Below, in pieces: positions 24,716-63,509 of a stretch of DNA of 64,000 bases (the first letter of the stretch is position 1; every line of letters begins with the position of its first letter). This stretch comes from Phymorhynchus buccinoides (lineage: Eukaryota > Mollusca > Gastropoda > Neogastropoda > Raphitomidae), in contig CM065712.1 of the NCBI GenBank assembly GCA_017654935.2, forward strand, positions 24,994,547 through 25,058,546, written 5' to 3'. The notes under the pieces are model-generated. The model was not told where the DNA came from. It saw nothing but the letters and a program-made list of their open reading frames with translations, and ran no database searches. Both the position numbers and the translations under genes were made by a program.

Positions 24716-25316
24716 TCATTCACTTGGGTAAGACCAGATCAGAGCAGAGTTCATTCATTCAGAATCAGAACAGACAGAGAGACAGAATCATTCATCGTCA
24801 TTCACTCTGCACTTGACTGCCAAGCCGAGAGGGTGTCTAGAGAAGAAATCAGCGACAAGAAGAAAAGGAGCTACATCACAGTCGAGTTTCAAAGCTCGCC
24901 TGTTTGAAGTCACACGACAGAAGAGAGAAAGAGAGAAAGCAGGCTACCATTAGGCTCAGGCCTACACTGCTGCTGCACGCAAACCACCGTTTCAAAAGGG
25001 GCCACCTCATCCGGACGAAGTAGCTACACTGCCATCCTCCACACCACCGCGAGGTTCCTCCCTGAGGGCCTTTTCCTCCTGTAAAAAAAAATTGTGAGTA
25101 AATAGAAACCTCAAGACAGTCTTGAGTCCCAGTTCACTCTTGGGCCTCTCTATCCTAACAAAGCCAATAGTTTAAGTGTAGTTCCTCTCGTCCTGGGTTG
25201 GCACCCTTCGAAATCTTTGTGTATATTTATATTTTTCTAATAAACATTTTTACCCACTTCCCTTTATGATTTTTCCCATGTTTTTGGTTCTTTGAATGTT
25301 GAAATAAGTGTGAACT
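24716..25316 (+). promoter_or_regulatory. 5' UTR / internal promoter region of element H
   Basis: About 600 bp between the preceding tail and the gag start, with no coding content. Its start resembles the 5' region of element D (both share a CAGACAGAG... and CCGAGAGG-containing block; D at about 33,650-33,700). Non-LTR elements keep an internal promoter here; no core motif can be named with certainty. Confidence 0.45.
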
Positions 25317-27380
25317 ATGAGCGAAAGTCAGAAAAAAAGAGGGGGAAAGGATCCCCCCGATGTCTCAGACAGACAGGGAGTCTTCCCAGTCCAAATGTGT
25401 CACTGGAAGAACAGGACGTTGTATTTGCAAATACACCAAAGGGGACCTCAGCCGAGGAAGTGTTTACACTCTTCACCCCCACTTGCAAACGACTTAGGAG
25501 AGCTGGTTCTGATTCCAGCCCTCCAAAAAAGGACCAAAAAGAAAACAAGAGAAGAGCTCGCGATTATGGAGGGTGAGGGCCCCAGCTGTCTCCCTCCCAC
25601 TGATCGCGAGTCGCACTCGCAACAAGAAGGAGACAAAGACAGTGAAATTACAACCCCTGTCAGACTCTCCAACAGCGTCGACACCTTAAACAGTGTGGAC
25701 AACAACAAGCATACCAACAACACTGACCCAGAGTCTACCATGTCTGTTCAGGACAACTCACAACAACAACAAACCACAAAAAGAGTACCACCACGTCCAC
25801 ATAGAAACATCAACCAACCATTACCACCACCCACCTTCGTAAAACATCCTGTCATAGTCCAGGACCTGGGCACGGGACCAGCCACCATTAGTGGCCTTGG
25901 CCCACTGTCACAGATGAAGTTGTGGAACAACTCAATTGGTACCATCGTCAGCCAGAGACCCCTTGCGGGCAATCGGTGGCTGATCGGTTGTCAGTCTGCA
26001 GAACAACAAAATCGCCTATCCAAACTCCAAGAAGTGTCTAAAATTCCAATCACGTGCTCTATCCCATCAATCACCACCGAGGGGGTCATCAAACCCATAC
26101 CCCTCAGTGAAAATATCCAAAATCTACTCCCCTACATTTCCGAGGCCAAATCCATCATGCGCCTAAAAAACAGAGATGGAACAGATTCTAAAGCACTCAA
26201 AATCACATTCAATAAACCCATTTTACCCAAATTCACTCATATATCAATCACCGAATACGTAGTACAACCCTTTGTGGCCCCTGTCAGGAGGTGTAGGAAG
26301 TGTGCACGGCTAGGTCATAACATCGACCAATGCCGTGCCACTAAACACATCTGTACCAAGTGCGCCGGGCCCGGCCACGCAGCCAAAGACTGCGTGGCCC
26401 CCATGGCCAAGTGCGTAATCTGTGGGGGCCCACACTCTGCTGCCTACAACGGCTGTCCTCAATATCAGATCAGACTCAAAGCAAATAAAATAAGAGCCTA
26501 GGTCTTCATCACGTACGCGGAAGCAACACGTAGAGCTAAACAGGTCCTTGAGACAGAAAAACAACAACGTGAACAAACCCCCCTTTCACCCCCGCCCCAG
26601 AAATTGATCCATCATGGCGCCTGCCCCCACAACAACAAAAACAACAGCAACCAACCAATACATACGCACACACCTTGTCCAGGAACAAAACCACACAACC
26701 AAATACCCCTGCCCACTCACATGAACAACCAACCATCCACAGTAACTCTCTGACTCCGACCCCCTCACGCCCCCCCCCCCCCCCCCCCTCTCCCCCCAGG
26801 ACCCAGGTCCCCAACAGTGCGCTTTCCTGTGCGAAGTAGACTCTCAAGCACAGTTACAAGAAGGCTTCGAAACAAGGCCACCAAGGCGAAGCTTCTGGCT
26901 CCACAACAGGCTTCCCAGAACCGCCTTGATGAAATCATAACAGAGAAAATTAATCAACACACTGCCAAAATGATGGACAAACTAACAACACACATGGACA
27001 AACTTTTCAAATCACACACAAATCAGCTAAACAACACCCTACAACCCAAACCCACACAACCTGCCCAAGTCCAATGCCCCATCTTCCCTGACAACAACAC
27101 CCAACAAACTAACGGAAAATCTACAGCTGAGGTCTTCATGTCTGAAGTCCTCAAGCATTTTGCCAGGGCCAGAGCAACAAACAAACCCACACTTCTCTTG
27201 GAGGGACTGGCTTCCCTCCTTCCACCCTCCTGTAACCCTTCAATAATCTCCATGGGTCCTGGCAGTAGTTTAATGCAACTGGTCGAGCTAGCCTGTGGAA
27301 TTCCAGGGGCTAGCAGCCAGGAGGGGAAGGGCAGGATGTCGTCGCAGTTCTCCCGGAAATCTCAGTTACACAAAGTATAA
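25317..27380 (+). pseudogene. Element H gag (ORF1), frameshifted
   Basis: The N-terminus reads from 25,317, changes frame for the conserved VFTLFTPT.KRLRR segment (about 25,458-25,510), then returns to the frame that stays open to 26,501. Middle part: a conserved block (FVKHPVIVQDLGTGPATISGLGPLSQMK) and GNRWLIGCQS. Zinc knuckles: CRKCARLGHNIDQC (about 26,293), CTKCAGPGHAAKDC (about 26,352), CVICGGPHSAAYNGC (about 26,412). A TAG at about 26,500 and a 19-base C run at about 26,771 precede the C-terminal part, open 26,817-27,380 and ending SRKSQLHKV. It would bind element RNA. The same breaks occur in the right arm, so most are genuine. Confidence 0.82.
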
Positions 27381-28311
27381 TGCCCATTTCTAAAAATAGT
27401 ATCTGCATAGTAGTAACCTCCCTTTTTTAGTTACAGGCGCAGTCCAAATATTTAGTATCTTGCAGTGGAACTGTCGTTCCATTGCAAGAACAATTGACCA
27501 CTTGCTACACTTCCTTCAGTTTAATACTACTAAATACCAAATTTTATATTTACAATCACTTAATACAAAATTTTCTGATCTTCCAAAAATACTAGGTTAT
27601 CAATATTCCCCTAATGTAAGTAATGAAGAAGGTAGGGTTTATACTGCAACTTACATTAGTCAACACATTAAATACCATTCAGTTGTATCTCCAATAGTCA
27701 CTGACAATGATACAATTTATTCTAACACAATACAAACCAAAATTAATGGTACCACAACAAATTTTTTAAACCTTTACTTTCCTAAAGGTTATTATGCTAA
27801 TGCCACTCGTGACTGGCTATCTTTACTTTCCAAGTCCGCCTCCTGGGTGGTGGTGGGGGATGTCAATGCCCACCACCCCGCCTGGGAGGCTTTCAACACC
27901 AGCCCCGATTCTGGAGGTACAAAACTCTTCGACGAAATTAATAATTCTGATTTAATACTTTTAAATGATGGTTCCGCAACAAGATTGCCAGACAGCTCTA
28001 AACAGAAACCCACTGCCATTGATCTGTCCCTTGTGTCTCCTAACTTCGTAGTCAGTCACGAGTGGTATCCCTTTTCCGATAGTTTATTTTCCGATCATAA
28101 GCCTATTTCAATTGAATTTAACGTCTCATATGAAGAAACAAAAAACACAAAAACAACATCCTAAATACAATTTTGACAAAGCCAATTGGCATTTATTCCG
28201 ATCCCTTTTGAATAAATATAAAGTTAATAACATTTTACACACTAACTTAGAAACATATTATGACTATATTAGACAAACAATATTACAGGCCTGCGAAAAA
28301 TCAATTCCTTT
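27381..28311 (+). pseudogene. Element H ORF2 endonuclease domain, interrupted by insertion
   Basis: APE-type endonuclease with QWNCRSI (27,463), LQS in place of the expected Gln-Glu (Ser codon 27,556-27,558), GDVNAHHPAWE (27,860), AIDLSLVSPN and SDHKPI (28,090). A one-base change in an A run near 28,140 shifts the frame into NFDKANWHLFRSLLNKY. Sequence then stops matching ORF2 at ...KSIP (28,301-28,309), where element Y begins. Confidence 0.8.
28301..28311 (+). repeat. Target-site copy, left of Y
   Basis: TCAATTCCTTT; identical to 33,621-33,631 at the other end of Y, an 11-bp target-site duplication. Confidence 0.8.
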
Positions 28312-31300
28312 GTTTTACACAGCCACTTATGTGCATCTGTCTATCCACCACAACCAAGTACCAAGCCCAGAACCTAACATCACGGGTATACGTTATTCCA
28401 ACACAATCCAGACTAAGATCAATGGTAAACTTACAAGTATAATGAATGTCTATTACCCAATCAGTTACAATACTTTCGATTGGCTCTCTTCCCTGCCCGA
28501 CTCATCATCCTGGGTCGTGGTGGGGGATTTCAACGCGCACCACCCCTCCTGGGAGCTGTTTGGTTCAGTTCCCAGTGGGGGGGGGGGGGTGCGAAGTTGC
28601 TACAAGAGATAAATAACTCCCATTTAATCCTTCTGAATGACGGCTCTTCCACTAGGTACCCAGACTCAGCTCATCAAAAACCCACAGCAATTGATCTCAC
28701 CCTAGTAAGCCCAGATCTCGTACCGAACCACGAATGGTACCCCATATCAGACCCGTTATTATCCGACCACAAACCAATTTCGATAACACTTCATGCCCAA
28801 ATTCCCACTCCCACTCCTCCCCAACAACAACAACAACAATTTAACTTTGAGAAAGCTAATTGGACCCTATTTCAGTCCATCTTAAGTAAACACTCGAACG
28901 AAGATATATTTCATCCTGACCCAGATACTCACTATGGTAAATTAAGACAAGCAATTTTGCAGGCTTGTCAGTTATCTATCCCATTAAAAACATCAATAAT
29001 TCCTAATCGTCCTTCCCCCAAGCCCTGGTGGAACGACCAAGTTAAAAACATTATTAAGAAGAAGAAACAGGCCTGTAACTATTTTGACTGTCACCCAATC
29101 CCATCTAATCACATCCTTAAGCGAAAGGCAGAGAAGGACTGTGAGGATGCTGTCAATCTGGCCAAGAGAGAGTTCTTTGCTGTGGACGAGATAGTCAACT
29201 ATAAGGACCTGGGCACAGCCTGGAAAAAAGTAAACAAAATTAATAATAAAGGCCAATCATGGAGGCCCAGAGTGCTAAAGGACGACAAGTTAACTTCCAC
29301 CGACTCAGAAACAGCCGAGGTTTTTGCAGAAACGTTTGCCCAGGCAAGTCAGACCAAACACCTATCAACAGAAGAGCAAAATAGACGCAGCTCAGTTCCC
29401 TACATTCCAAAAAACAATAATAATTCTCTGTATATTAATTCACCCCTCAATATGACCGAGCTTGCTGACGCCCTTAATCAGATTAGGAAAGTCAATAAAG
29501 CAACAGGAGATGATCCCATCTCCTACAAAATATTGAAAAAATTACCCCCATCTTTTCTTAAAATTTTATTACACTATTATTCCAGATGTTGGGAGGAGGG
29601 GATCGTGCCTCAAACATGGAAAGAGGCACAGGTGGTAGGGATCCTTAAGCCAGGAAAACCGGCTAGGGACCCAAAGAGTTACCGCCCTATCTCCCTCACC
29701 CCGCATACTGGTAAACTTTACGAAAGAATCGTAAAAAACAGGTTAGAACATTTTCTTAAAAAAAAAAATATTATTCCCACTTTCCAGGCAGGTTTTAGAA
29801 GGAATAGGTCCTGCATGGAACAAGTAGTAAGGCTTACCTCCCATGTCAGAAAAGCACTTGCCAGACGCAGGAAAGTCTTTGCCACCTTTTTTGACATAAA
29901 AGGGGCGTATGACTCCGTCTGGCATGGGAGGCTTTTAGAAAAACTCAGCAGGCTCGGCATTGAGGGCAAAACGTACAATTTCATTTACTCCTTTCTTCAG
30001 AACAGAAGTTTTAGGGTTAGGGTGGGCCACTCCCTTTCGACCAGACACTACATGGATATGGGAGTGCCCCAGGGCAGCATCATTGCCCCAATCCTATTTA
30101 ACATCATGCTTCACGACATTTCCAAACTAAAACTTGAAGGCTGCCGCATTTCTATGTTTGCGGATGACATAGCAATATGGTCTCTCCCAACAGCTAGAGG
30201 GATCAAAGTAACGCTTGCACCTGAACTTGGTGCCCACCAGCACAACACCAATTTAGTCATTCATTATCTAACCAGCAACGGATTCACCCTATCATCACAG
30301 AAATGCGATTTTATGGTTTTTTCTAATAGACAGGATAAAAACGAAGATTACAAGATTAACATTCTTGGAAAAGTCAAAAGACCCCCTCCTCAAGTTAAGT
30401 TCTTAGGAGTCATTTTGACACGAAACTTGTCTTGGACAGAACATGTAAACCATCTAATAAAGAAAGCCACCAAGGCTCTAAACTTTATTAAAGTCATTTC
30501 CTACCAGAAATGGGCTCGGGACCCCAAGTTTTTAGTTTCTCTGGTTCGGGCTCTAGTCCGTAGCCGATTAACTTATGGTATGGAAACCTTTTATAACTTA
30601 ACCAAATCTAACCTAAACCAACTCGCTACTTTGGAACTGAAAGCCTTAAAGACTGCCTTGGGCCTACCCTCCTACGCTGTTAATCTTTTGATTTACAGAG
30701 ATATAGGCTGGCTCCCTTTGGAACATCTCATAAAGTTAAATTGTGCCACCTTTTTGACCAGAATCTATAGCACACGGAATCTTACTACAGATGATTTTTT
30801 CACCCAATTTTCTGACCCATATTTTATCAATTCCAAAAAATCAGTTAGTAAATACATTAACATCTTTGACTTCTCCAAGGAGTTGTTTGAGAAATCGGAC
30901 CTGACGATTAACAATATTGCGTTTTACACAAAATACATAGTACCACAGTGGGACTGGGATCCTCCAGTATATGACATCTCCCTCCACCTTCAATACAATA
31001 AAGAGGTAGATACTAACTATCTCACTATTGCAGCCAAAGAAAAAATTTTCAACCTTAGGCATGCCTTGAGCATTTTCACAGACGGCTCCAAATTAAGAGA
31101 CAACCAAATTGGATGCGCATTCACAATTCCCAAATTAAAATTTGTTAAGGCTTTTCAACTAAATAAACATGTTTCCATCTTTTCATCTGAACTTTGGGCT
31201 ATCCTAGAGGCCCTTTCCTATATAAATTATCTCCCGAATGCCCCGCTTAAGATGGTCATCTACTCTGACTCACTTTCCTCCATCAAAGCACTTCAGGGAC

Positions 31301-31902
31301 ACAATAAGAATCGTCTAGAAATTAAAAACGAAATTAAAAACTTAATCCATCAACTCCGTCGCAAGGGTACTGATGTCACTTTGGCATGGATACCATCCCA
31401 CTGTGGTCTTATCGGCAACGATCTGGCCGACCACGAAGCTAAATTGGCAGCCTCCCATAGGGCCGGTACCTTACAGGACATAGGCCTATCCACTGGCGAA
31501 GCCACATCAATACTAAAACGAGCATCTTTCCAGGAGTGGGCCAAGGAATTGGAAACTTTTGCCAAGGCCCACTCCTGGGACCCAAATATAGTACAGGGGG
31601 GATTGTTTCTTACAGTTCCACGTCAAATACAACGACTTATCTTTCGTATAAGAACTAAAGCATTTTATAGTAAATTCAAGAACATCACCTGTGAGTGTAC
31701 AAAAAATCTAAATTTTGACCACCTTTTTCAACCCTGCGCTTACATTCTAAATGAATTTCACGAACTACATCTAAAATTAAAATCTGCTAACATTCCCTTC
31801 ACCCAAAAAAGCCATATTATCCAAAGGTGATAAGGAATGGTCTCCTTTGGTGTGGCTTGCAGAAGCCATACATAATGCTTCATTCAAATCGTACTTCTAA
31901 AT
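28312..31902 (+). pseudogene. Element Y ORF2: partial endonuclease, RT, RNase H (nearly intact)
   Basis: Partial endonuclease with GDFNAHHPSWE (about 28,527), AIDLTLVSPD and SDHKPI (about 28,768). A 13-base G run at 28,577-28,589 shifts the frame; from about 28,590 a reading frame of over 1,000 codons stays open to 31,830. RT: FFDIKGAYDSVWH (about 29,890), GVPQGSIIAP (about 30,062), FADDIAIW (about 30,160). RNase H: FTDGS (31,075), SSELWAILEAL, YSDSLSS, WIPSHCGLIGND. Near 31,806 an A6 run (A5 in the right arm) shifts the last ~25 codons, which otherwise end ...ASFKSYF at 31,902. The only other loss is the 5' truncation of the endonuclease. Confidence 0.88.
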
Positions 31903-32187
31903 AACCACACTCATACTCAGTTAATAATGGTTAGGGTGGAGTCCCTCCGGGCCGCGGGCTGGACACCTGCCCACACTCCTGCTCCCCTCCCCCCCCCTCT
32001 CCCTTTTTATCTAAACATGCGCGTGTGTCGCTGAAGTGGCTCCCTTTTGAGCCCATCATTTTTTATCTCCCTCCCCCATAGTGGACGGGTGTCCGGCGCG
32101 TGCACCGGAGGCTTCTCTCATAGTCGTAAGGCTTTGATGCTGGTGCTCCCCTCCCTGTTAGGGACCACTTAAGCGGCGTCTATCCTC

Positions 32188-32226
32188 TGCTCGAGTCCCT
32201 CTCCCTCCCTCCCTCCGCCTCGAACA
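32188..32226 (+). other. 3'-UTR hairpin with pyrimidine loop (element Y)
   Basis: An imperfect stem (CTGCTCGAG against CTCGAACAAG) encloses the same TCCCTCTCCCTCCCTCC core found in families 1 and D. Confidence 0.5.
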
Positions 32227-32973
32227 AGATAGAATTGTTAACCACCTTACCCCCACCGATAGTCTAATCATTGTGTCCCACGGTTTAAACAGGGGCGGGG
32301 GAGATTTTGTGGCTACCCCCCCCCCCCCTTGGTTAGTCAGTGGATTAATTCTAAAAACTTTAGAGAATATTTTTCACCATACGTAATCAAAAACAACAAC
32401 AACGTCAGTCTCCTGACTGCTAGTCGGCCGGTTGACCTCCCTCGCGATCGTTTGTAGGGGTCGGGTGCGCGCATACACTCCACTCCATACACAACAATTA
32501 AAATTTTACAATTCTACTTACCTCATACATTATACTCTATTACCTACTAAAAAGTATCTTGGAACTACCTCCCAATCTTTTATCGAAATTTTTAAACTAT
32601 ACCCGGACATTATATATACCATGACCAAACTACTTTTATCTACTTTTAATCTTTAAATACTTAACTACCTATACCTAAATTGCAACATGATTACTCTACT
32701 TATTAAGAGAGGACGATCTCTCGTTTGATGTTACTAATTGGCATAGGATAACTTTGAATAACACCACCTAAAAATTACCATGGCACCCTCTATCATAATT
32801 CGGTTTAATGTCAAGATCTATATAGCTTCGCTTCATCCGCCCAAGATAAATTTTTAATAAATCTTTTACTATACATATTCCGTTTAATTAAATTAAATAT
32901 CTTACTAAATCTTTTATCAGCCTAGAATTTTAAAACAAAAACAAAATTTTTAATCAAAGATTATAACTCAAAT

Positions 32974-33145
32974 CCGAGATGTAAATTTTCCCCTGTATAG
33001 GGAAGTCCCGGGGGCAGAGTTATCTTCCCCTGGTAGGACACATTAAAAATTTTTTAGCCCGAGATGTACATTTTCCCCCTAATTTATAGGGATGTCCTGG
33101 GGGTAGATGTTTTCTTCCCCCGGTAGGGCATGTAAAAAAAATTAG
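32974..33145 (+). repeat. Tandem ~85-bp module in Y 3' UTR
   Basis: Two diverged copies of a unit GAGATGTA..TTTTCCCC...AGGGA.GTCC.GGGG...CTTCCCC.GGTAGG (from 32,976 and from 33,061). One related unit lies at the same relative place in family-1 3' UTR (near 24,190-24,225 and 61,020-61,085). Confidence 0.75.
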
Positions 33146-33620
33146 ATTTTTCTTTTACTTACCAACTCCTGTAAAATATTGAACATAAATTTGTAAATAA
33201 ATCTTTTTTTTTTTTAAATAAATAAGGGCCATTAATGTTTTTTTATTATTAAAAACTGAAGTTAAATCTTCTTTTAACATTTGTAGCCCTGAAATTTTAA
33301 TCCCGGGGGAGTTTAGGGTTTCCGGTTGGGTCACAAAAGGCTTAAATAACAAAAGAAATTTTTATCTATTAAAAATTTTAAAAAAATAAAACTATCTAAA
33401 ATTTTATCAAAGTATTACCAGACTCCTTTAAATAGCCTAAAAAAATCTCGTCAGACTAATCTAAAAAACGGTTTGCGCCTCTAAAAATATATTCCCTCTA
33501 ACATTATTTCTGTTCATGTAACGTTTTTATGTTTTGTCCTGTCCCTCAATCTAATCCAAGTAAAATTGTCTCATATGTGCCCTTATGGGCCGAGAGGACG
33601 TAAAAACCTAAGTTTCTTCT

Positions 33621-33631
33621 TCAATTCCTTT
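33621..33631 (+). repeat. Target-site copy, right of Y / left of D
   Basis: TCAATTCCTTT, matching 28,301-28,311; followed by a T-rich stretch and the 5' region of D. Confidence 0.8.
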
Positions 33632-33650
33632 TTTTTATTTTTTATTTATC

Positions 33651-34220
33651 AGACAGAGTCACTCACTATCTAGCAGCCGAGCCGAGAGGACGTGCGCAGA
33701 AAGAGGAGCAACCAAGAAAACTCGCCTGAGTGAACACTTCGCAGCGTGCAAAGCGTGCACAGAAAAAGAAGAGGACCAACGACTTCGACTTCAAGTCAAG
33801 CCAAGAAGAAAAGAAGACCCAATATAGAGCGAGCAGCTTCCACTAGGCTCTGCCTACTGTCTCGCTCTATCCACACCACCGCTGTGCAGGGCGCCAGCAA
33901 ATTCACACCGAGAGAGACTTCCACACCACCACTGACACCTCTAAGCCAACCACGAGGTACCTCCCTGAGGACCCTTTCCTCCAGACCACAAAAAGTTAAG
34001 TAACTCAAACCGTGAGTCAGACTCGAGTCCCAAGTTCATTCTTGGGCCTCCACTTTCATAACAGCTATTAGCATTGTGTTGTTCTCTCTTCCCGGGTTCG
34101 CACCCTTTGGACATCTTTGTGTATATTTTTCCTAACACACCTTTTTTCCACAATCCTCTTATTATTTCTCCCATGCCTTTTGTTTCTTGTTTTTGAACAT
34201 AGGTATAGAAGAGTGAGAAA
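33651..34220 (+). promoter_or_regulatory. 5' UTR of element D
   Basis: Non-coding stretch before the D gag start at 34,221; shares its beginning and a few blocks (CCGAGAGG, CAGACAGAG) with the 5' UTR of H. It presumably holds the internal promoter. Confidence 0.4.
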
Positions 34221-35117
34221 ATGAGCAAAAGTAGAACGATAGGGGGGGGGGGCGACCCCCCCGATCCGCAAAAAGACCGGGAGTCCCCTCAGTCACCCAG
34301 TCCAAACAAAGACCCTCAAAACCCCGAAAGGACCGAAATTTACATCGATGAGGCAGAGATTTCAATTCACCCCCCCAAAGGATCAAACAGTGACGATGTT
34401 TTCACACTGTTCACTCCCTCCAGAAAACGTCTCAGGAGGACTGGATCTGTATCCAGTCCTCAGAAAGCTGACCCAGATCCGAAAAAGACTAGAGAAGAGC
34501 TCGGGACCATGGAGGGCGAGGGCGCTTGCTCTCTTCCCTCCACTGGCCACGTATCACATTCAGTACCAAACAGTGAACCTGACAGCAAGGCCGCGTCTCC
34601 GATCACGACCCCTGTCAGGCGATCTAACAGCCAAGACACTGTTCACAGTGCAACCAACATGCAAACAACAGACACTACTGATTCGGACTCAACGAAGTCC
34701 CACACCAACAACAACAACACCCAAAACCCACAGCCCTGGAAAAAAACACAAAACAGAACCTATAGAAACACAAGCCAACCCCAGCCCCCACCCACCTTTG
34801 TAAAACACCCGGTTATCGTCCAAGACCTGGGTACAGGCCCGGCAACAATCAGCGGCTTAGGGCCCCTCTCCCAAATGAAAATGTGGACTAACTCAATCGG
34901 AATCATTCTAAGCCAGAGACCCCTGGCGGGCAATCGGTGGCTGATCGGCTGCCAATCCACTGACCAACAAAACAAACTAGCCAAACTCCAAGTAGTATCT
35001 CAAATCCCAATTAAGTGCATCATCCCGTCAGCTACCACCAAGGGGGTTATCAAACCCATACCCCTCGGTGAAGACATTCAAGAACTGCTTCCACACATCC
35101 CTGACGCTAAATCCATC
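34221..35117 (+). pseudogene. Element D gag, N-terminal part only
   Basis: Open from the ATG at 34,221. Keeps the VFTLFTPSRKRLRR segment, the FVKHPVIVQDLGTGPATISG block and GNRWLIGCQS, and runs to ...PDAKSI. At this point sequence switches to the end of the endonuclease domain, so all three zinc knuckles and the gag C-terminus are missing. The fused frame ends after 11 more codons at 35,153. Confidence 0.82.
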
Positions 35118-36992
35118 TTGTCCCTTTTCCGACACATTATTTTCGGACCATAAACCCATATCTATCGAATTTAACGTCCCCCATGAAGAAATAAATAGTA
35201 CACAAAAACAACAGCCCAAATACAATTTCGATAAGGCCAATTGGCACCTATTTCGATCTCTCCTTAATAAATATACAGTTAATAATATTTTAAACAATAA
35301 CTTAGAAACTTATTATGACAACATTAGAAAAACAATCCTACAAGCCTGTGAGAAGTCGATTCCTGTCCTTCCCCAGTTTGACAATAGCAAACCTAGGGCG
35401 AAGCCGTGGTGGAGTGACAGGGTTAAACAGGCAGTGCAGGCCAAAAAGAAGGCCTGCAGCCGTTTCGACCTGCACCCCACCCCACCCCCAACCATATTCT
35501 AAAGCTTGAAGCTGAAACCTACTGTAATGATACAATCAATGAATCAAAAAGAGAATACTTTAATAATAACAACGAAGATATCATTAATTACAAAGACCTC
35601 AGTAAAGCCTGGAAAAAACTCAAGAAAATTAATTCGAAAACCACGGTATGGGAGCCCAGAGTCCTCAAAAATAACAAACTCACTACTAACAACTTTGACA
35701 CGGCCAACACCTTAGCGGAAACATTCGCTCAAGCAAGCCAGACTCAATTCCTCCCCACTAAAGAAAAAATTAAGCGTTTAAGTAACCCCCACCACATAAA
35801 ATCGGATGATAACTCGCACTACATTAATGCCCCTCTTAAAATTACCGAGGTTGCTGCATCCATTAACTTAATTAAAAAAACCAGTAAAGCTACAGGAGAA
35901 GATCCTATCTCCTATAAACTAATAAAAGAACTCCCCCAATCTTTTCATAACATCTTACATGATTTCTATTCCCAGTGTTGGGAGGGGGGAACCGTTCCTC
36001 AAGCGTGGAAGGAGGCACAGGTAATAGGGATCCTGAAGCCAGGAAAACCAGCCAGGGATCCCAAAAACTACCGCCCCATCTCCCTCACCCCTCACTTGGG
36101 TAAAATTTACGAGCGTATCGTAAAACATAGACTGGAATATTTTCTAGATAAAAACAACATCATCCCCAAATTTCAAGCAGGGTTCCGTGCACATAGAAAC
36201 TGCATGGAACAAGTCGTCAGACTTACCTCCCATGTCAGACGCTCCTTTGCACATCGCAGAAAAGTCCTGGCCACCTTTTTCGATATAAAAGGGGCCTACG
36301 ACTCAGTCTGGCATGGGAGACTCCTTGATAAACTCAGCAGCCTCGGCATAGAGGGCAACACATTTAATTTTATTATCTCATTCCTACACAACCGCAGTTT
36401 AAGAGTAAAAGTAGGTCAATCCCTGTCCTTGTCTCACCATCTTGACATGGGAGTGCCCCAGGGCAGCATCATAGCTCCTACACTATTTAATATTATGGTC
36501 CACGATATTTACAAATTAAAACTTGATAACTGTAAGATATCTATGTATGCGGACGACATCGCCATCTGGTCCATTAACACCCCCCCTGGAAATTATTACA
36601 GTTTAGATCCCTTCCTCCTAATTCACCAAACCAATACAAACAAAATCACAGACTATTTACACAGTAATGGATTCACTGTTGCCCCCCAGAAATGTGAATT
36701 CATAGTTTTTTCAACAAAAAAGAACGATGACTTCACCCTCAAAATTGATAATGTTATTAAAACTTCTGCACAATCCGTTAAATTTCTTGGAGTCATTCTA
36801 ACACACAACTTATCCTGGAACGACCACATCAATTACTTAATTCAGAAAGCTCATAAAGCTCTTAACTTTATAAAAATCATTTCAAGCCAATCATGGGCAA
36901 AAGATCCCAAATTTCTAACACACTTAGTACGAGCACTGATAAGAAGCAGACTCACATATGGCATGGAAGCCTTTTACTCCCTGTCACAACAA
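35118..36992 (+). pseudogene. Element D ORF2 first part: endonuclease tail and RT (family-1-like)
   Basis: Starts with the last endonuclease motif (SDHKPISIEF, about 35,140) followed by NWHLFRSLLNKYTVNN and KPRAKPWW. Several small frame changes occur between 35,495 and 36,095. RT from 36,096 is open: FFDIKGAYDSVWH (about 36,277), GVPQGSIIAP (about 36,450), YADDIAIW (about 36,546), KFLGVILT (about 36,780). The reading stops matching this family at ...FYSLSQ (about 36,990). Confidence 0.82.
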
Positions 36993-38523
36993 AACAGAGC
37001 CCCAAAGTAAAGTTTTTAGGAGTAACCCTAACTCCAAACCTTAATTGGAATGAACACATTACATACCTAATCAAGAAAGCCAACCAGGCAATAGGTTTCA
37101 TAAAAACCATTTCAACAGAACAATGGGCAAACCCCCCAAATTCCTAACCCTTTTAGTTGGTGCTTTAGTGAGAAGCAGACTAACTTACGGAATGGAAGTT
37201 TTCCACTCCCTAAATAAAGACCAGGTACGAAGGCTGCAATCAGTAGAGTGTAGGGCACTCAAAGCAGCTCTAGGCATACCATTTTACGCAATCAACAAAT
37301 TGGTGTACAGAGATGTAGGATGGCTGCCACTCGAAAAACTTATAAAGTTAAACTGTGCCAAATTCATCATCAGATGGTACGCGGTAAAATCAGAGACAGA
37401 CCAAGAATTTATAATGGATATACACGATCCCTCCTTGGACTACTCAAATTTACAAAAGAAACGTCCTCTTGTATACTTAAAAACAAAAGACATAATGAGG
37501 TACTCAAAAAGCCTATTTGTTAAAGCAAATCTTGAATTAAAGGACATTACCCCTCACCCGGTAACCACCTTCCCTACGTGGGAAAGGGAAGAAACCAACT
37601 TTGATGTAACCTTACACGAGCAATACTCTAAACAAGATATAAATATAATTGGCGCCGCAGCTAAAGAAAAAGTTCATGGCTTAAGACATTGTATGCAAAT
37701 TTTTACAAATGGCTCTAAAATTGATAATAAGATCGGATGCGCTTTTGCCATCCCCTCACTTGATATAGTTAAATCATTTCAATTAAATGATGATCTGTCA
37801 ATCTTTAGTGCTGAACTTTGGGCCCTGTTAGAGGCCTGCAGCTACATAAATAGTTTACCAAACCCACCAATTAACGTGACTATTTTTACAGATTCACTAT
37901 CTTCGATCCAAGCTATTCAAAATGAAACAACAAATAGATCTGAAGTGATAAGTGAAATCAATTTACTGTTACATTGCATTAAAAGAAAAGGAACAAATTT
38001 ACAAATAATATGGATTCCGTCCCACACAGGTATAAAAGGTAATGACCAAGCAGACAGGGCTGCTAAACAAGCAGCCCTGGGCCATGCTGGGACCAAAATA
38101 AATATAAAGCTATCTATTAAAGAAGCAAAGGCAAAACTAAAAACATCAGCTTTTCAGGAATGGGCAGAAGAGCTAAAAGAATACACTAAAACTCATCCAC
38201 AAGATCGTAAGATAGTTTTTCAAGGCCTATTCCTTAATATACAACGATCTTTGCAATCAACAATTTTCAGACTAAGAACAGAATCAGAACGATGTAAATT
38301 TGTAACAATAATATGTAAATGCAATGAGGCATTGAACGTAAACCATCTCTTCAACCCATGCGTACAAATTAAAATAGAACTTAAAGAACTACTAGATAAA
38401 CTGAAATTACACAATATTCAATACACTAAAAAAGACATTCTCACTAAGGGGTCGGAAGGATGGTCCCCAGCCGTATGGCTGGCAGAGACCCTCAGGCAGA
38501 CACCCCTCGGCCGTCACTTTTGA
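36993..38523 (+). pseudogene. Element D ORF2 second part: RT end and RNase H from another family
   Basis: Begins with a second copy of the RT segment KFLGVTLTPNLNWNEH, already present upstream, so about 70 residues are duplicated in diverged form. RNase H 37,690-38,100: the first catalytic motif reads FTNGS (Asn codon 37,708-37,710) instead of TDGS, followed by SAELWALLEA, FTDSLSS and WIPSHTGIKGND. C-terminal zinc-type motif (CKCNEALNVNHLFNPC, about 38,310-38,360) and end at 38,523. The 466-codon part from 37,123 is open. Confidence 0.85.
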
Positions 38524-39532
38524 TAGGCTATAGTAAATCATAAAAGGCCCGTCTTAAAATCTAACTTTTTAATAAAGACAAAAATAAAAGTAAACTGTTT
38601 TAACCGCTCCGTAGTCGCGTCTAGCTTAATATAAATAAGCTTCAGAGTCCCCCCGCATAAGGACTCTGTTCGCGACGACCTGCCTCTGTTTGTTCTGGGG
38701 AGGAGGGGTCCCTCTCCCTCCCTCCCCCCGGCCAAACACGTAGGAATCGCAGCCTTTTTATAACTATTTTTATAAATGTAAATAGTGAACCAAACATTAT
38801 TGGACATTTAATCCCTGTTGGACCCCAGGTTTGGCGGGCGGGGTGGGGGAGAGACTGGAGTCTGTTTTCTCCCTTCCCCCCCCCCCCGTTTAACCTTTTT
38901 TTCCCCTGTGTAAAAAAGCCCCATCTCTTAACTAGGTTTACCAGGATTCGGCCTCATTGGTTTGCGCTTTTTGGAATCCTAGGTATGGAAACTTGTTAAC
39001 TTTTTAAGTAAATCCAACAGGGACCCATTAAAATTTGAATACTATATTGGTTTCAGTAAAAACCAATGCGATAGCTTTGGCTTATTTTAAAAGAGAAAAA
39101 ATGGTCTTTGGCTCGTGACACTTGCTGTCACGAAGTCAAAGATTAGATGTATAGTTCTTTTAACCTTTTTTTTGGAAATAAAGTATTTTGTGTAAATAAA
39201 TACGCCCTCTCCGTAGGGCAGACCTTAACTGATTTTTAAACTTTTTGACTTCATTTTAGAATGGTGGGCCTGGAAATTTTAATCTGAAGATGCTCAAACA
39301 CAATTTTATCACAAATTTTAAATACCAAAATAAAAATTATAACTACTAGCTAGCTAGCTAACGGGTCAAAATAATACGAGCCATGGCACCTAAACTTTAT
39401 TCTAACAACAAACAAAAAACTTTATTAAAAAATACTTAAATATTTTTTCTATCTCCCATCCCCACAACTTTATAAATAAGTAATGTCCCATATGTTCTTT
39501 TAAAGAGCGGGAGGACGTAAAGCATAACCGAC
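38524..39532 (+). other. Element D 3' UTR
   Basis: Non-coding. An 8-bp perfect hairpin (CAGAGTCC/GGACTCTG, 38,644-38,669), the pyrimidine-loop hairpin (38,688-38,737), a C run (38,877), GGGCCTGGAAATTTTAAT (39,265) and the terminal tail (39,483-39,532). Confidence 0.72.
38688..38737 (+). other. 3'-UTR hairpin with pyrimidine loop (element D)
   Basis: GTTTG...GGGGAGG pairs with CCTCCCC...CAAAC around GTCCCTCTCCCTCCCTCC; stem differs in sequence from family 1, loop core is identical. Confidence 0.55.
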
Positions 39533-39545
39533 TCAATTCCTGCTC
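39533..39545 (+). repeat. Target-site copy between D and e2
   Basis: TCAATTCCTGCTC; same 13-mer as 39,605-39,617 and 40,935-40,947. Confidence 0.88.
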
Positions 39546-39605
39546 ATGTCCCATATGTGCCCTTATGGGTCGAGAGGACGTAAAACCCTAAGTTTTCTTC
39601 TTCTT
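39546..39605 (+). mobile_element. e2: 60-bp element consisting only of the 3' tail
   Basis: Just the terminal hairpin (CCCATA/TATGGG), CGAGAGGACGTAAAACCC and a TTCTTC repeat, bounded on both sides by TCAATTCCTGCTC. Read as an extremely 5'-truncated retrotransposon insertion. Confidence 0.7.
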
Positions 39606-39617
39606 CAATTCCTGCTC
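39605..39617 (+). repeat. Target-site copy between e2 and e3
   Basis: TCAATTCCTGCTC. Confidence 0.88.
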
Positions 39618-40935
39618 ATCGTCTTTCTTTCTTTTCCTTTTTGGAAAAGGGACTTTGGCTGGGTCTCTCAGGATGGTGACAGATGGGTATCTCTTGCCAG
39701 CCTGAGACACCTCCGGGTGGTCGCTCCTATTGGCGACGCACCCCAGGCAACGCCCCTAACCGAAGGGAATCCTTAACCAGAACCTTAAAACAACTAACCA
39801 GCAATAAATTAAAATGAATACCCAAGTAATTTTTAATATAACTAGTGGCCTCTGGCGGAGTGTCCCCTCACTCAACCTAGTCAATATTTTTAGTTAGAAT
39901 TAGATATAACTATAAAGGTGAAAACGAAACAGCCTCTTATGAGACTATCTTTTGGATGTTACTTCGTACACCTATTGGGAAGTACTACTCAATTTAATGA
40001 CACACATTGGAGGAGCTAGAGCCCCTACCAATGCATAAAGGATAATAAGACATAACAAACTAAATTTTAATGGTAACTCTTAAAACCATTTTTAATGTTT
40101 ATAAATTTAAAAACTACTTATAATGCACCAGATAAAATCATTTTAATGCTTGTTTTAGCAACTAAAGCAATAGACTTTGGACAAAATATATTTTAGTGAA
40201 GTTCATAAAACTTTTTAACAAGTTTACTAAGTTAAACTTACCCTATATCAATTGAGATCTTAAAATTAACCATAATAAACCATATTTTACTTGTCATTAA
40301 AAATAAAAACCTAATTAAACCAGATAAAGTCACAAACATATGTACAGAACTCTGATGTATATATTTTTGTACAGACAAACATTTTTAATAGTTCTTTTAA
40401 AACTGGGGCACTCCATGATCACTTGATCACGTAATAAAGGGTGTTCTTCTTTTAACAATAAAAAAGTTGTTTTTAAACGCTAGGTCCTGTGACCCTCTGG
40501 TCACTTAAACTTGTATAGCAGACCCTAACCTTTCATTTAAATGTAAATATTGTATAAAATGTTATGAAGGCCTTTGCCTCCTTTTTTAAACTTTTTATAA
40601 ATAAAGCTCCTTGAGCACAATATAAAATTTTTTTTAACTGTAGCCCATCTTTTAAAAATAATATTTTTTATCACTATAAACTCAGATTTTACAAAAATAA
40701 ACCAACTTGCTTCTTTAAAATTTCTTTTCCAAAAAAAACCACAACAAAAAACCCACTCTAAAAAACACCATTATCTACTTTAAAATTCTGCTTCACCAAA
40801 AAACAAAACAAAAACTATCTGTATTCTTGATTAAAATCTTCCTTTTTTCCAGGATCTTTATAATTTCAAATGCCCCAACTGGCCCTTTGGCCCAGAAGGC
40901 GTAAAAACTCTATTTTTTTCTCTCTCTCTCTCTCT
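39618..40935 (+). mobile_element. e3: 5'-truncated non-LTR insertion (3' UTR only)
   Basis: About 1.3 kb of non-coding AT-rich sequence with GTAGCCC (about 40,640), ending in GCCCCAACTGG...AGAAGGCGTAAAAAC and a (CT)n terminus, then the target-site copy. Same tail type as the nested insertion at 22,247-23,608. No coding content; a 76-codon open frame at its left is not supported. Confidence 0.75.
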
Positions 40936-42344
40936 CAATTCCTGCTCTTCCCCTGTTTGACAACAATAAACCTAGGGCAAAACCCTGGTGGAAGAGAAGG
41001 TAAACAGGCATGCAGGCCAAAAGAAGGCCTGCCACCGTTTTGACCTGCACACCCCCCCCCCCCCCCCCCCCTTACCATATCTTAAGCTGGAAAGCAAAAC
41101 TCACGTGCGCGATTTATAAATGAAGCTAAAAGAGATTTTTTAATAAATAAGATATCACTGATTATGAAGAACTTAGTAAAGCTTGGAAACAGCTTAGAAA
41201 ATTTAAAATGCGAAAAAAATACAGTAGGGGACCCATAGTTCTGAAAAACAACATCTAACTACAAATAATATTGACACGGCAATACTCTGGCAGAAACTTT
41301 CGCCCAGGCCGCCAGTCAAATTCTCCCCAAAAGAAAAAAGAAAACGCAAGTAACCCCTTTCACAAAAAATTCACATAACTCTCATTACATCAATGCCCCC
41401 TGACAATGACAGCTTGCTGCATCCATTAATCAAATTAAGGAAAACCAATAGCTACAGGAGAAGACCCTATCTCCTACAAAACAATAAAACAACTTCCCCA
41501 ATCTTTTCACAATATGTTACAATGATTTCTATCCAAGTGCTGTAGGAGCGAGCCCTTGTGCCTCAAGCCTGGAAGGAGGCACAAGGTGGTCGGGATCCTA
41601 AGCCAGAAAACAGCCGGATCCCAAAAGTTACCGCCCCATTTCCCTCCCCCACACCTGGCAAAATTTACGAGCGTATCGTAAAAAACGACTTGAATATTTT
41701 CTTGATAAAAAACACTAATTAATCCCCAAGTTCAAGCAGGTTTCCGTACAACACAGGAACTGTATGGAACAAGTTGTTAGACTACCTCCCACTTCAGAAC
41801 GATCTTTTGCAGCGCAAGAAAAGTCCTGGCCACCTTCTTTGACATAAAAAGGGCCTATGACTCCCTCTGGCCATGGGAGCTATTAGATAAACGCATCAGC
41901 CTCGGTATAGAGGGCAATACATTTAAACTTATTCTTTCTTTTTACACAATAGAAGTTTTAAGAGTAAAGGTTGGCCACTCACTGTCCATGTCCCACCAGC
42001 TTGATATGGATTGCCCCATGGCAGCATCATAGCCCCACGCTTTTTTAACATTATGTTCACACACATTAGTAAATTAAAATTACCAAACGGAGAGATTCTA
42101 TGTATGCCGATGACATAGCAATATGGTCCATAATCCCCCCGCCCCCCCCGGGAAACACACATAACCTTTGATCAGAAAATCTTCTATCCACCAAATCAAC
42201 ACAAACAAAATTACGGACTTACTACATATTTAACGGATTTACAATAGTCCTCCCACAATGTGACAGTTATTTTTTTTTTTCGACAACAAAAGTTGATGAT
42301 CTCACTATCAAGATTGATAATGTTATCCAGTCCCCAGCATATTT
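40936..42344 (+). pseudogene. Element H ORF2 resumed: RT region, low-quality sequence
   Basis: Starts exactly at the target-site sequence as coding DNA (AIPALPLFDNNKPRAKPWW in frame at first) and continues as RT: GILKPG-like, FDIK.AYDS (about 41,840), GVPQGS remnant (about 42,005) and YADDIAIW (about 42,100), all broken by frequent single-base losses. The frequency of indels rises toward the gap and exceeds that elsewhere, so many breaks are probably sequencing errors at a contig end. Confidence 0.72.
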
Positions 42345-42844
42345 NNNNNNNNNNNNNNNNNNNNNNNNNNNNNNNNNNNNNNNNNNNNNNNNNNNNNNNN
42401 NNNNNNNNNNNNNNNNNNNNNNNNNNNNNNNNNNNNNNNNNNNNNNNNNNNNNNNNNNNNNNNNNNNNNNNNNNNNNNNNNNNNNNNNNNNNNNNNNNNN
42501 NNNNNNNNNNNNNNNNNNNNNNNNNNNNNNNNNNNNNNNNNNNNNNNNNNNNNNNNNNNNNNNNNNNNNNNNNNNNNNNNNNNNNNNNNNNNNNNNNNNN
42601 NNNNNNNNNNNNNNNNNNNNNNNNNNNNNNNNNNNNNNNNNNNNNNNNNNNNNNNNNNNNNNNNNNNNNNNNNNNNNNNNNNNNNNNNNNNNNNNNNNNN
42701 NNNNNNNNNNNNNNNNNNNNNNNNNNNNNNNNNNNNNNNNNNNNNNNNNNNNNNNNNNNNNNNNNNNNNNNNNNNNNNNNNNNNNNNNNNNNNNNNNNNN
42801 NNNNNNNNNNNNNNNNNNNNNNNNNNNNNNNNNNNNNNNNNNNN
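42345..42844. other. Assembly gap, exactly 500 N, at the centre of the inverted repeat
   Basis: Placeholder-length gap between the two arms. About 525 bases before it (41,819-42,344) have no partner in the right arm. Confidence 0.97.
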
Positions 42845-43758
42845 TTCCGCCGGCGTGGCAAAAGATCGTCCTGACGTGTGTATGTAAGTCTAACAACTTG
42901 TTCCTCAGTTCCTGTGTGTACGGAAGACCTGCTTGAAACTTGGGGATAATATTGTTTTTGATCAGAAAATCTTCAAGTCTGTTTTTTAACGATACGCTCG
43001 TAAATTTTGCCAAGGTGTGTGGGTGAGGGAATGGGGCGTTAACTTTTGGGATCCCTGGCTGGTTTTCCTGGCTTTAGGATCCCGACCCCTGTGCCTCCTT
43101 CCAGGCTTGAGGCCACAAGTTCCCTCCTCCCAGCACTTGGAATAGAAATCATGTAACATATTGTGAAAGATTGGGGAAGTTGTTTTATTGGTTTTGTAGG
43201 AGATAGGGTCTTTCTCCTGTAGCTTTATTGGTTTTCCTAATTTGATTAATGGATGCAGCAAGCGCGGTCATTTTCCAGGGCATTGAATGGTAATGAGAGT
43301 TATGTGATTTTTTTTTGTGAACATGGGTTTACTTTTGGCGTTTTCTTTTTTGCTTTGTGGGGAGAAATTTGACTTGGCTGGCCTGGGCGAAAGTTTCTGC
43401 CAGAGTATTTGCCGTGTCAATATTATTTGTAGTTAGTATGTTGTTTTTCAGAACTCTGGGCTCCCATACAGTATTTTTAGCGTTAATTTTTCTAAGCTTT
43501 TTCCAAGCTTTACTTAAGTCTTCATAATCAGTGATATCTTCTTTATTAAAAAATCTCTTTTTGCTTCATTTATAATATCGTCGCAGTGAGTTTCTGCTTC
43601 CAGCTTAAGAAATGGTTAAGGGTGGGGGGGGGGGGGGGGTGTGCAGGTCAAAACGGTTGCAGGCCTTCTTTTTGGCCTGCACTGCCTGTTTTACCTTCTC
43701 TTCCACCAGGGTTTTGCCCTAGGTTTATTGTTGTCAAACAGGGGAAGAGCAGGAATTG
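42845..43758 (-). pseudogene. Element H ORF2 fragment, right arm
   Basis: Inverted counterpart of 40,936 to about 41,818: from the target-site sequence (43,747-43,758) through the linker and early RT (IYERIVK-type segment near 43,000), then cut by the gap. Better sequence than the left arm in places but still with indels, including a run of about 18 G at 43,622. Confidence 0.75.
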
Positions 43759-45157
43759 AGAGCAAGAAGAGAGAGAGAAAATTATAGTTTTTACGCCTTC
43801 TGGGCCAAAGGGCCAGTTGGGGCATTTGAAATTATAAAGATCCTGAAAAAAAAGGAAGATTTTGATCAAGAATACAGATAGTTTTTGTTTTTTTTTTTGG
43901 TGAAGCAGAATTTTAACGTAGATAATGTAGTGTTTTTTTATGTGTCTTTGGTTTTTGTTGTGGTTTTTTTTTTGAAAAAGAAATTGTTAAGAAGCAAGTT
44001 GGTTTAATTTTTGTAAAATCTGAGTTTATAGTGATAAAATATTTTATTTTAAAAAGATATTTTAGCTGTTTGCTTTTTTGCATGTCTGGCAGGTTGGAGG
44101 AAGTCTATGATTAAAAAACCCCAGGGCTACAGTTAAAACACATTTTTATATTGTGCTCAAGGAGCTTTATTTATAAAAAGTTTAAAAAGGAGGCAAAGGC
44201 CTTCATAACATTTTATACAATATTTACATTTAAATGAAAGGTTAGGGTCTGCTATACAAGTTTAAGTGACCAGAGGGTCACAGGACCTAGCGTTTAAAAA
44301 CAACTTTTTTTATTGTTAAAAGAAGAACACCCTTTATTACGTGATCAAGTGATCATGGAGTGCCCCAGTTTTAAAAGAACTATTAAAAATGTTTGTCTGT
44401 ACAAAAATATATACATCAGAGTTCTGTACATATGTTTGTGACTTTATCTGGTTTAATTAGGTTTTTATTTTTAATGACAAGTAAAATATGGTTTATTATG
44501 GTTAATTTTAAGATCTCAATTGATATAGGGTAAGTTTAACTTAGTAAACTTGTTAAAAAGTTTTATGAACTTCACTAAAATATATTTTGTCCAAAGTCTA
44601 TTGCTTTAGTTGCTAAAACAAGCATTAAAATGATTTTATCTGGTGCATTATAAGTAGTTTTAAATTTATAAACATTAAAAATGGTTTTAAGAGTTACCAT
44701 TAAAATTTAGTTTGTTATGTCTGAGGCTATTATCCTTTATGCATTGGTAGGGGCTCTAGCTCCTCCAATGTGTGTCATTAAATTGAGTAGTACTTCCCAA
44801 TAGGTGTACGAAGTAACATCCAAAAGATAGTCTCATAAGAGGCTGTTTCGTTTTCACCTTTATAGTTATATCTAATTCTAACTAAAAATATTGACTAGGT
44901 TGAGTGAGGGGACACTCCGCCAGAGGCCACTAGTTATATTAAAAATTACTTGGGTATTCATTTTAATTTCTTGCTGGTTAGTTGTTTTAAGGTTATGGTT
45001 AAGGATTCCCTTCGGTTAGGGGCGTTGCCTGGGGTGCGTCGCCAATAGGGGCGACCACCCGGAGGTGTCTCAGGCTGGCAAGAGATACCCATCTGTCACC
45101 ATCCTGAGAGACCCAGCCAAAGTCCCTTTTCCAAAAAGGAAAAGAAAGAAAGACGAT
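43759..45157 (-). mobile_element. e3 copy, right arm (3' UTR only)
   Basis: Reverse complement of 39,618-40,935 with the same tail and flanking target-site copies (43,747-43,758 and 45,158-45,169). Non-coding. This copy includes a short piece near 44,060-44,130 that is absent or shortened in the left arm. Confidence 0.78.
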
Positions 45158-45169
45158 GAGCAGGAATTG

Positions 45170-45229
45170 AAGAAGAAGAAAACTTAGGGTTTTACGTCCT
45201 CTCGACCCATAAGGGCACATATGGGACAT
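45170..45229 (-). mobile_element. e2 copy, right arm (60-bp 3' tail)
   Basis: Same 60-bp tail as 39,546-39,605, between target-site copies at 45,158-45,169 and 45,230-45,241. Confidence 0.7.
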
Positions 45230-45475
45230 GAGCAGGAATTGAGTCGGTTATGCTTTACGTTCTCCCGCTCTTTAAAAGAACATATGGGACATTACTATAT
45301 CTTACTAAAAGTTATGGGGATCGGGATATAGAAAAAAAATAATTTAAGTATTTTTCAATAAAGTTTTTTGTTTGTTGTTAGAAGTAAAGTTTAGGTGCCG
45401 AATGGCTCGTACTAATTTGACCCGTTAGCTAGCTAGCTAGTAGTTATAATTTTTATATTGGTATTTAAAATTTGT

Positions 45476-49700: not shown

Positions 49701-50118
49701 TTGTATCAATTACAGTAGGTTTCAGCTTCAAGCTTTAGAATATGGTTGGGGGTGGGGTGGGGTGCAGGTCGAAAACGGCTGCAGGCCTTCTTTTTGGCCT
49801 GCACTGCCTGTTTAACCCTGTCACTCCACCACGGCTTCGCCCTAGGTTTGCCTATTGTCAAACTGGGGAAGGACAGGAATCGACTTCTCACAGGCTTGTA
49901 GGATTGTTTTTCTGATGTTGTCGTAATAAGTTTCTAAGTTATTGTTTAAAATATTATTAACTGTATATTTATTAAGGAGGGATCGGGAAAGGTGCCAATT
50001 GGCCTTATCAAAGTTGTATTTGGGCTGTTGTTTTTGTGTACTATTTATTTCTTCGTGGGGGACGTTAAATTCGATAGAAATGGGTTTATGGTCCGAAAAT
50101 AATGTGTCGGAAAAGGGA
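46756..50118 (-). pseudogene. Element D ORF2 copy, right arm (chimeric RT, RNase H)
   Basis: From 50,118 down: endonuclease tail (SDHKPISIEF), linker, RT of the first family (49,122 to 48,212, with one frame change near 48,870), then the second family's RT end and RNase H (48,211 to 46,756). RNase H is interrupted near 47,300-47,510, where sequence quality is poor. Same architecture as 35,118-38,523. Confidence 0.8.
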
Positions 50119-51611: not shown

Positions 51612-51619
51612 AGGAATTG
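51612..51619 (-). repeat. Target-site core between Y and D, right arm
   Basis: CAATTCCT in sense orientation, counterpart of 33,622-33,629. Confidence 0.75.
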
Positions 51620-63458: not shown

Positions 63459-63509
63459 GTCTGGGGCGGGGGGAGGGAGGGAGAGGGACCCCTCCTCCCC
63501 GCCCCAGAC
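63459..63509 (-). other. Conserved 3'-UTR hairpin (copy C)
   Basis: Same perfect 13-bp stem and pyrimidine loop as 21,755-21,805. Confidence 0.6.

What the first reader, a model, noticed from the sequence alone, without database searches (positions are those of the whole stretch)
28301..40947. Four retrotransposon insertions stacked at one site inside another retrotransposon's ORF2
Element H ORF2 stops at TCAATTCCT (28,301-28,309) and resumes as coding sequence at TCAATTCCTGCTC (40,935-40,947, the codons for ...IPALP). Between lie Y, D, e2 and e3, all in H's orientation. Each junction carries a copy of the site: 28,301, 33,621, 39,533, 39,605 and 40,935. Y has an 11-bp duplication (TCAATTCCTTT); e2 and e3 have a 13-bp one (TCAATTCCTGCTC). 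The elements have different 5' ends and families, yet landed at the same base. This looks like target-specific insertion into a relative's ORF2, a self-parasitic hot spot that would spare host genes. I know of no described family with this target.
Basis: partly seen in the sequence, partly recalled or inferred. Interest (0 to 1): 0.88.

Follow-up and report, generated by a model that had tools for sequence, protein, structure and literature searches.

The report
Retrotransposons reusing one ORF2 insertion site
In this genome, LINE and SINE retrotransposons have inserted repeatedly, in the same direction, at one exact base inside a gene of related LINEs (in at least seven separate copies, four deep in the window), likely because each insertion duplicates its target and so recreates the site; similar piling-up is seen at unrelated sites too.

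Summary
The stack is real. Five copies of TCAATTCCT mark the junctions of four same-direction insertions (Y, D, e2, e3) that split LINE H's ORF2, whose frame resumes behind them. A copy without N on another chromosome rules out a product of the scaffold join; the window's own second copy is an inverted arm around a 500-N gap.

Genome-wide, 63 places hold the right half of this ORF2 site. I read the upstream flank of all 63: 52 are empty and 11 carry a LINE or SINE 3' end at exactly this base, at least 7 independent events. None of 22 distinct empty flanks (50 bp) carries a full LINE/SINE insertion. The site is a true recurrent hot spot.

It is not the family's target: 17,212 copies of the 3' motif exist, 20 sampled insertions lie elsewhere, and 16 target sites show no clear common motif. 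Six of those 20 places are themselves clusters of units (the shared duplication is clear in two, partial in four), and a second reused base lies in a LINE 3' UTR. Best reading: target-primed insertion in which the duplication regenerates a favoured site; why a site is favoured is open. New variant of known nested or target-specific LINE behaviour.

The parts
24720..28309 (+). LINE H: ORF1 and the left part of ORF2 up to the site (5' end approximate)
   Evidence: self-BLAST, frames, sequence
28301..28309 (+). site copy at the H/Y junction (TCAATTCCT)
28310..33620 (+). Y: 5'-truncated LINE; open frame 28429-31830 with endonuclease (partial), RT and RNase H
33621..33629 (+). site copy at the Y/D junction
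33630..39532 (+). D: LINE with an internal deletion near 35120 and a join near 36990 to another element; its own ORF2 site (35356) is empty
35356..35368 (+). empty homologous site inside D (TCGATTCCTGTCC)
39533..39545 (+). site copy at the D/e2 junction (TCAATTCCTGCTC)
39546..39604 (+). e2: about 59 bp, extreme 3' end of a Y-type element
39605..39617 (+). site copy at the e2/e3 junction
39618..40934 (+). e3: about 1.3 kb 5'-truncated element with the second type of 3' end (CCCAGAAGGCGTAAAAACTC)
40935..40947 (+). site copy at the e3/H junction, start of H's resumed ORF2
40935..42344 (+). H: right part of ORF2 up to the N gap
42345..42844 (.). 500-N scaffold gap
42845..64000 (-). inverted second copy of the stack region
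18487..18499 (+). empty homologous site in LINE H1 (GCGATTCCTGCTC)
22247..23608 (+). e3-like element inserted elsewhere (H1 3' UTR), with a short GAT duplication; not at TCAATTCCT

Best explanation
A group of LINEs and the SINEs that share their 3' end have inserted at one exact base of ORF2 in at least seven separate copies of related LINEs, and the four-deep stack in the window likely grew because each insertion duplicates its target and so recreates the site. Shown: exact junctions, one orientation, target duplications, independently occupied copies, and same-site stacks on unrelated sequences elsewhere. Inferred: the LINE-encoded apurinic-type endonuclease nicks the bottom strand at the start of the duplicated segment, target-primed reverse transcription lays down the new copy, and a staggered second cut leaves a fresh copy of the site on both sides, so a favoured site stays usable; SINEs are predicted to use the same machinery in trans. 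Not explained: what makes a site favoured, since 16 sites show no clear common motif; DNA shape, chromatin or a long degenerate recognition are untested possibilities.
For: Five exact junction copies and an interrupted, resumed ORF2. The stack without N on C29. 11 of 63 site-bearing places occupied at this base, at least 7 independent events, 0 full LINE/SINE insertions in 22 distinct empty 50-bp flanks. SINE insertions at the site with 12-14 bp repeats on both sides at C2 (two places), C11 and C3122. Stacks with repeated duplications at other sites; 8 of 98 gaps between 99 listed 3' ends on C1 are 300 bp or less, all 8 on one strand, 0.19 expected. Second reused base in a LINE 3' UTR. Domains in pieces of ORF2: RT, RNase H and endonuclease.
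Against: Sixteen target sites show no common motif, so recognition of the site by the endonuclease is not shown. Duplication copies within some stacks differ by several bases (TTAGTTTCGAATGA, TTAGTGTCGAAT, TTAGTGTTGACATA), more than simple recent copying predicts, and the rightmost unit of that stack is not followed by the site. In four of the six sampled clusters the shared duplication is partial, A-rich or seen on one side. Growth direction is undecided: the left unit is younger in 8 of 13 neighbouring pairs. The e3-like copy has only a 3-bp duplication.
Confidence: 0.6

Rival explanations
1. A strictly target-specific LINE family (like R1 or Tx1L) whose endonuclease recognises the ORF2 site; copies elsewhere are strays.
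For: At least 7 independent exact hits in 63 site-bearing places.
Against: 17,212 exact 3' motifs in the genome, 20 of 20 sampled places on C1 are elsewhere, and different LINE types and SINEs share the site.
Confidence: 0.08
2. RNA-guided return: transcripts that read through into the 3' flank carry the target sequence and anneal to the same site in other copies of the repeat.
For: No motif shared between sites; reuse within one repeat family; C2 and C18 SINEs share the tail CGTCG before the site.
Against: Several different families share one base, and each would need its own founder there.
Confidence: 0.12
3. Tail docking: new insertions are drawn to the 3' tail of an existing copy and use whatever sequence follows it.
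For: Stacks occur on unrelated sequences and in one orientation.
Against: At least 7 separate LINE copies were hit at the same ORF2 base, six of them without a stack being seen; empty copies show no prior tail.
Confidence: 0.1
4. One concerted event: the reverse transcriptase copies the target overhang and jumps to further RNAs, so a stack arises at once.
For: Same duplication between all units, mixed truncated units.
Against: Units in one stack differ in divergence from their subfamily consensus, e.g. 2.6-10.2% in L042 and 0.0 versus 4.6% in L052; single insertions at the ORF2 base exist.
Confidence: 0.06
5. Assembly artefact or tandem duplication.
For: Inverted arms meeting at a 500-N gap in the window.
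Against: C29 carries the stack without N; neighbouring units differ in family and 5' truncation; single insertions at the same base lie on six further contigs or pairs of contigs.
Confidence: 0.04

Closest known systems
Zepp LINE clusters of Chlorella/Coccomyxa (PMC3446292, passages read)
   Same: LINEs inserted into earlier copies of themselves, forming nested clusters.
   Different: Zepp clusters are reported as one per chromosome, likely centromeric. Here stacks are dispersed, involve several LINE types and SINEs, and reuse one exact base with the duplication repeated.
Target-specific endonuclease LINEs (R1 and Tx1 clades; PMC4640811 introduction read; Tx1L into the transposon Tx1D is recalled)
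   Same: Exact insertion site in a multicopy sequence; that paper names transposons among known targets.
   Different: Most copies here are at other sites, and no recognition motif was found in 16 sites.
LINE/SINE partners with a shared 3' end; snRNA-headed SINEs (class recalled)
   Same: Short elements with U4- or U2-like heads (Rfam, below gathering score) carry the LINE 3' end.
   Different: Reuse of the same base by both partners is not something I saw described in the listings.

Membership tests
Strictly target-specific LINE (R1/Tx1 type) | Nearly all copies at one target sequence | tested here: not met
   11 of 63 site places occupied against 17,212 exact 3' motifs genome-wide; 20 of 20 sampled C1 places elsewhere
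Strictly target-specific LINE (R1/Tx1 type) | Same exact base used in independent copies of a multicopy target | tested here: met
   at least 7 independent events at the ORF2 base
Strictly target-specific LINE (R1/Tx1 type) | Endonuclease cuts the target sequence specifically | not testable with these tools
   needs purified protein
Apurinic-endonuclease LINE of the I superfamily | ORF2 with endonuclease, RT and RNase H | tested here: met
   Pfam Exo_endo_phos_2, RVT_1, RNase_H in the Y frame
Apurinic-endonuclease LINE of the I superfamily | RT phylogeny within the I group | not tested
   no named reference set was at hand; the clade name is recalled from domain order
Zepp-like nested cluster | LINE copies nested in one another | tested here: met
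   stack in the window and on C29
Zepp-like nested cluster | Clusters confined to one place per chromosome | tested here: not met
   several same-strand clusters within the first 15.6 Mb of C1
snRNA-headed SINE | Head similar to a small nuclear RNA | tested here: inconclusive
   U4 and U2 matches with E 0.00015 to 0.09, all below the gathering score

The most novel reading that the evidence does not exclude
A whole LINE/SINE community in which an insertion site, once used, stays a preferred site: each insertion regenerates its target, giving multi-family stacks genome-wide and homing-like sites in the group's own ORF2 and 3' UTR, so the elements channel a notable share of new copies onto earlier copies of themselves.
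Probability: 0.35. Interest if true: 0.78.

Novelty: new variant of a known kind. Interest (0 to 1): 0.62.

Why it matters
Target choice by endonuclease LINEs is usually seen as either nearly random or locked to one multicopy gene. Here one genome appears to show a middle state: exact reuse of unrelated bases by several families and their SINEs, including sites inside their own relatives. If confirmed it offers thousands of natural experiments on what makes a DNA site attractive for target-primed insertion, and a way for such elements to pile onto themselves. It also warns that arrays of SINE/LINE units with one repeated duplication need not be tandem duplications.

Tried and rejected
Assembly concatenation: rejected for the stack (C29 copy without N). 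Tandem duplication of one unit: rejected, neighbouring units differ in family and 5' truncation. Strict ORF2 specificity: rejected for the group as a whole. TCAATTCCT as part of the elements' own 3' end: rejected, other 3' ends with the same motif are followed by other sequence. Stack 2 target as a second ORF2 motif (ISVEF): considered, dropped because its left flank matched none of the window's LINEs. Nick-site consensus: not found in 16 sites; two columns just exceed the 95% null and none the 99% null. Growth direction by SINE age: inconclusive. Viral-contig search with the Y frame: 44 pattern matches, no relative. Protein search: 154 relatives among the 7986 candidates scored, best 54% identity, the best ones without a name. 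Papers: the searches (0 papers) listed nothing whose title or abstract start describes same-base reuse by several LINE/SINE families; I saw listings only, except passages of PMC3446292, passages of PMC4585706 and part 1 of 5 of PMC4640811. Two papers were not held. One search failed for a term that was too short.

The genome tool warns that counts of repeats are lower bounds, and 17,212 counts exact motifs only. Of the C3, C12 and C3164 insertions I read only the 3' tail, not the left junction; the C18 left junction was only partly in the window fetched. The sample of 20 is roughly every fifth of the first 99 listed places of one chromosome, not a random draw from the genome. In it, 17 of 20 tails have an upstream repeat longer than in their own shuffled control; L040, L051 and L054 do not. 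A count at the reused site of the repeat in L050/L051 did not complete.
Full report
What was claimed. Four retrotransposons (Y, D, e2, e3) sit between the two halves of LINE H's ORF2, each junction marked by TCAATTCCT, and this may be target-specific insertion into a relative's ORF2.

The observation. The five + strand copies are at the stated coordinates (13 in the window on both strands, 1.05 expected, 0 of 100 shuffles with as many). From left to right H ends in codons ...EKSIP; then come Y (5'-truncated; its frame 28429-31830 is open for 1133 codons), D, e2 (about 59 bp, the extreme 3' end of a Y-type element), e3 (about 1.3 kb, a second type of 3' end), and then SIPALPLFDNNKPRAKPWW in H's frame (H's right part has frame breaks further on). 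The two halves of the window are inverted copies meeting at a 500-N gap, so the window shows one stack twice. The arms differ mostly by substitutions: about 97.7-100% identity in most 1-kb bins, 84-90% at 38.0-39.9 kb, 88.6% in the last bin. A third copy on contig C29 holds the stack and the continuation of H without N, 99.1% identical to the left arm over 18 kb. The stack is therefore not a product of the scaffold join.

What the elements are. Pieces of ORF2 match endonuclease, reverse transcriptase and RNase H families; H's ORF1 has no Pfam match but ends in CCHC-like repeats by eye. The closest database proteins are unnamed, at 54% identity and less. From domain order this is an I-superfamily-like LINE (name recalled, no tree made). 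The 3' ends share ...CATATG...CGAGAGGACGTAAAA or the related ...CCCAGAAGGCGTAAAA, then a short tail with CT, TTC, CGT or CATT units. Elsewhere, elements of about 190 bp carry the same 3' end and a U4- or U2-like head (Rfam E 0.00015 to 0.09, all below the gathering score): SINEs that likely depend on these LINEs.

Is the site reused? The genome was held (2.12 Gb). GAGGACGTAAAA followed within 30 bp by TCAATTCCT occurs 15 times, with no match to the reversed control. Six are the stack copies. Five are U4-headed SINEs at the same ORF2 base of other LINE copies (C2 twice, C11, C18:39.6 Mb, C3122). Two are incidental and belong to a stack with another duplication (C18:54.4 Mb), and two are not in recognisable ORF2 (C4, C27). 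Without regard to what lies upstream, the right half of the site occurs at 63 places, reversed control 0 (up to 3 mismatches). I read the upstream flank of all 63: 13 in stretches already fetched, 10 and 40. Eleven are occupied: the five SINE places, three stack copies, a LINE tail at C3:77709180, and another LINE tail at C12:58623887 and C3164:44158 (same tail, counted as one event). Fifty-two are empty. Counting duplicates once leaves seven independent events. Among the 47 empty flanks (22 distinct), none carries a full LINE or SINE insertion in the 50 bp upstream; two have small oddities (L072, 6 extra bp at the site; L099, a 17-bp piece like the U4 head about ten bases upstream). If insertions were uniform over these 51 positions, all seven at one base would have a chance of about 6e-11, and uniform insertion in the genome predicts 0.0005-0.003 hits.

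Is it the family's target? No. There are 17,212 exact GAGAGGACGTAAAA motifs against 37 for the reversed control. I sampled 20 places, roughly every fifth of the first 99 listed on C1. In 17 of 20 the tail is followed by a segment repeated upstream and longer than in its shuffled control (typically 11-15 bp once tail overlap is allowed for). Targets include a tandem repeat, the RT region of another LINE, and sequence that I did not identify. Sixteen target contexts (15 besides the ORF2 site) show no motif; two columns just exceed the 95% null. In the window an e3-like element sits in H1's 3' UTR, and H1's own 3' end is followed by other sequence.

Stacking is general. Of 98 gaps between the 99 listed 3' ends on C1, 8 are 300 bp or less, all 8 on one strand, where 0.19 are expected. 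Six of the 20 sampled places hold two or more units (L042, L047, L049, L052, L056, L058): the repeated duplication is clear in L042 and L058, partial in L049 and L056, A-rich in L052, and seen on one side of L047. On C29 one stack repeats TTAGTKTYGA-like copies ten times, with a left flank that matched none of the window's LINEs; the copies differ by up to several bases and the last unit is not followed by one. A smaller stack repeats TTATCATC. L050, L051 and L058 lie within a few bases of each other in copies of one other repeat. A second reused base lies in a LINE 3' UTR: ATAAGAATTTTAAAC, used by a LINE at C29:18944052-18945876 (its left copy differs at two positions) and by a SINE at C1:14280110.

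How it most likely works. Shown: exact, same-direction reuse of a base by different elements, with the target duplicated. Inferred: target-primed insertion by the LINE machinery, shared with SINEs; because both sides receive the duplicated segment, the used site is restored and can be used again. Which copy is reused is not settled: the 11-bp match on both sides of Y includes the T-run that starts D, which suggests that Y came last and to the left; SINE divergences fit this in 8 of 13 neighbouring pairs, which is not decisive. What marks a site as favoured is unknown. Rivals (strict target, RNA-guided return, tail docking, one concerted event, artefact) are listed with their tests.

Known kinds. 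LINEs that target transposons and nested LINE clusters (Zepp) are known. The mix seen here (dispersed stacks, several LINE types plus SINEs at one base, an ORF2 site in relatives) did not appear in the listings. I rate it a new variant of a known kind.

Noticed in passing
window 21271-42344 and 42845-64000: Large inverted repeat meeting at a 500-N gap, likely two haplotypes or duplicate contigs joined in scaffolding; D's 3' UTR differs strongly (84-90%) between the arms.
   Followed up: partly
L011:6154-6199 (C29:18946153-18946198): Type I hammerhead ribozyme above the Rfam gathering score, directly behind a LINE 3' end; perhaps a Penelope-like element or retrozyme (labels recalled).
   Followed up: partly
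window 24710-24730 and C29:18946105: Two H1-type 3' ends at different loci are both followed by TTGGGTAAGACC; perhaps another reused target.
   Followed up: no
L001 (C4:64880708): H1-type 3' end followed, after a tail of about 40 bp, by TCAATTCCTGCTC and then a long TC microsatellite; not among the 63 site places and unexplained.
   Followed up: partly
L099 (C30:24366335): A 17-bp piece resembling the U4 SINE head (TTTGGCCGAGGCGTGGT) about ten bases upstream of an otherwise empty ORF2 site.
   Followed up: no
L018 9332-9478 (C29:18889.3 kb): U2-like headed SINE (Rfam U2, below the gathering score) inside a SINE/LINE stack.
   Followed up: partly
window 33680-33700 and 33585-33600: The motif CCGAGAGGACGT occurs both near the 5' end of D and at LINE 3' ends.
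   Followed up: no
window 720-1688: Frame with a DNA polymerase type B domain (DNA_pol_B_2), perhaps of a Maverick/Polinton-like element (label recalled).
   Followed up: no
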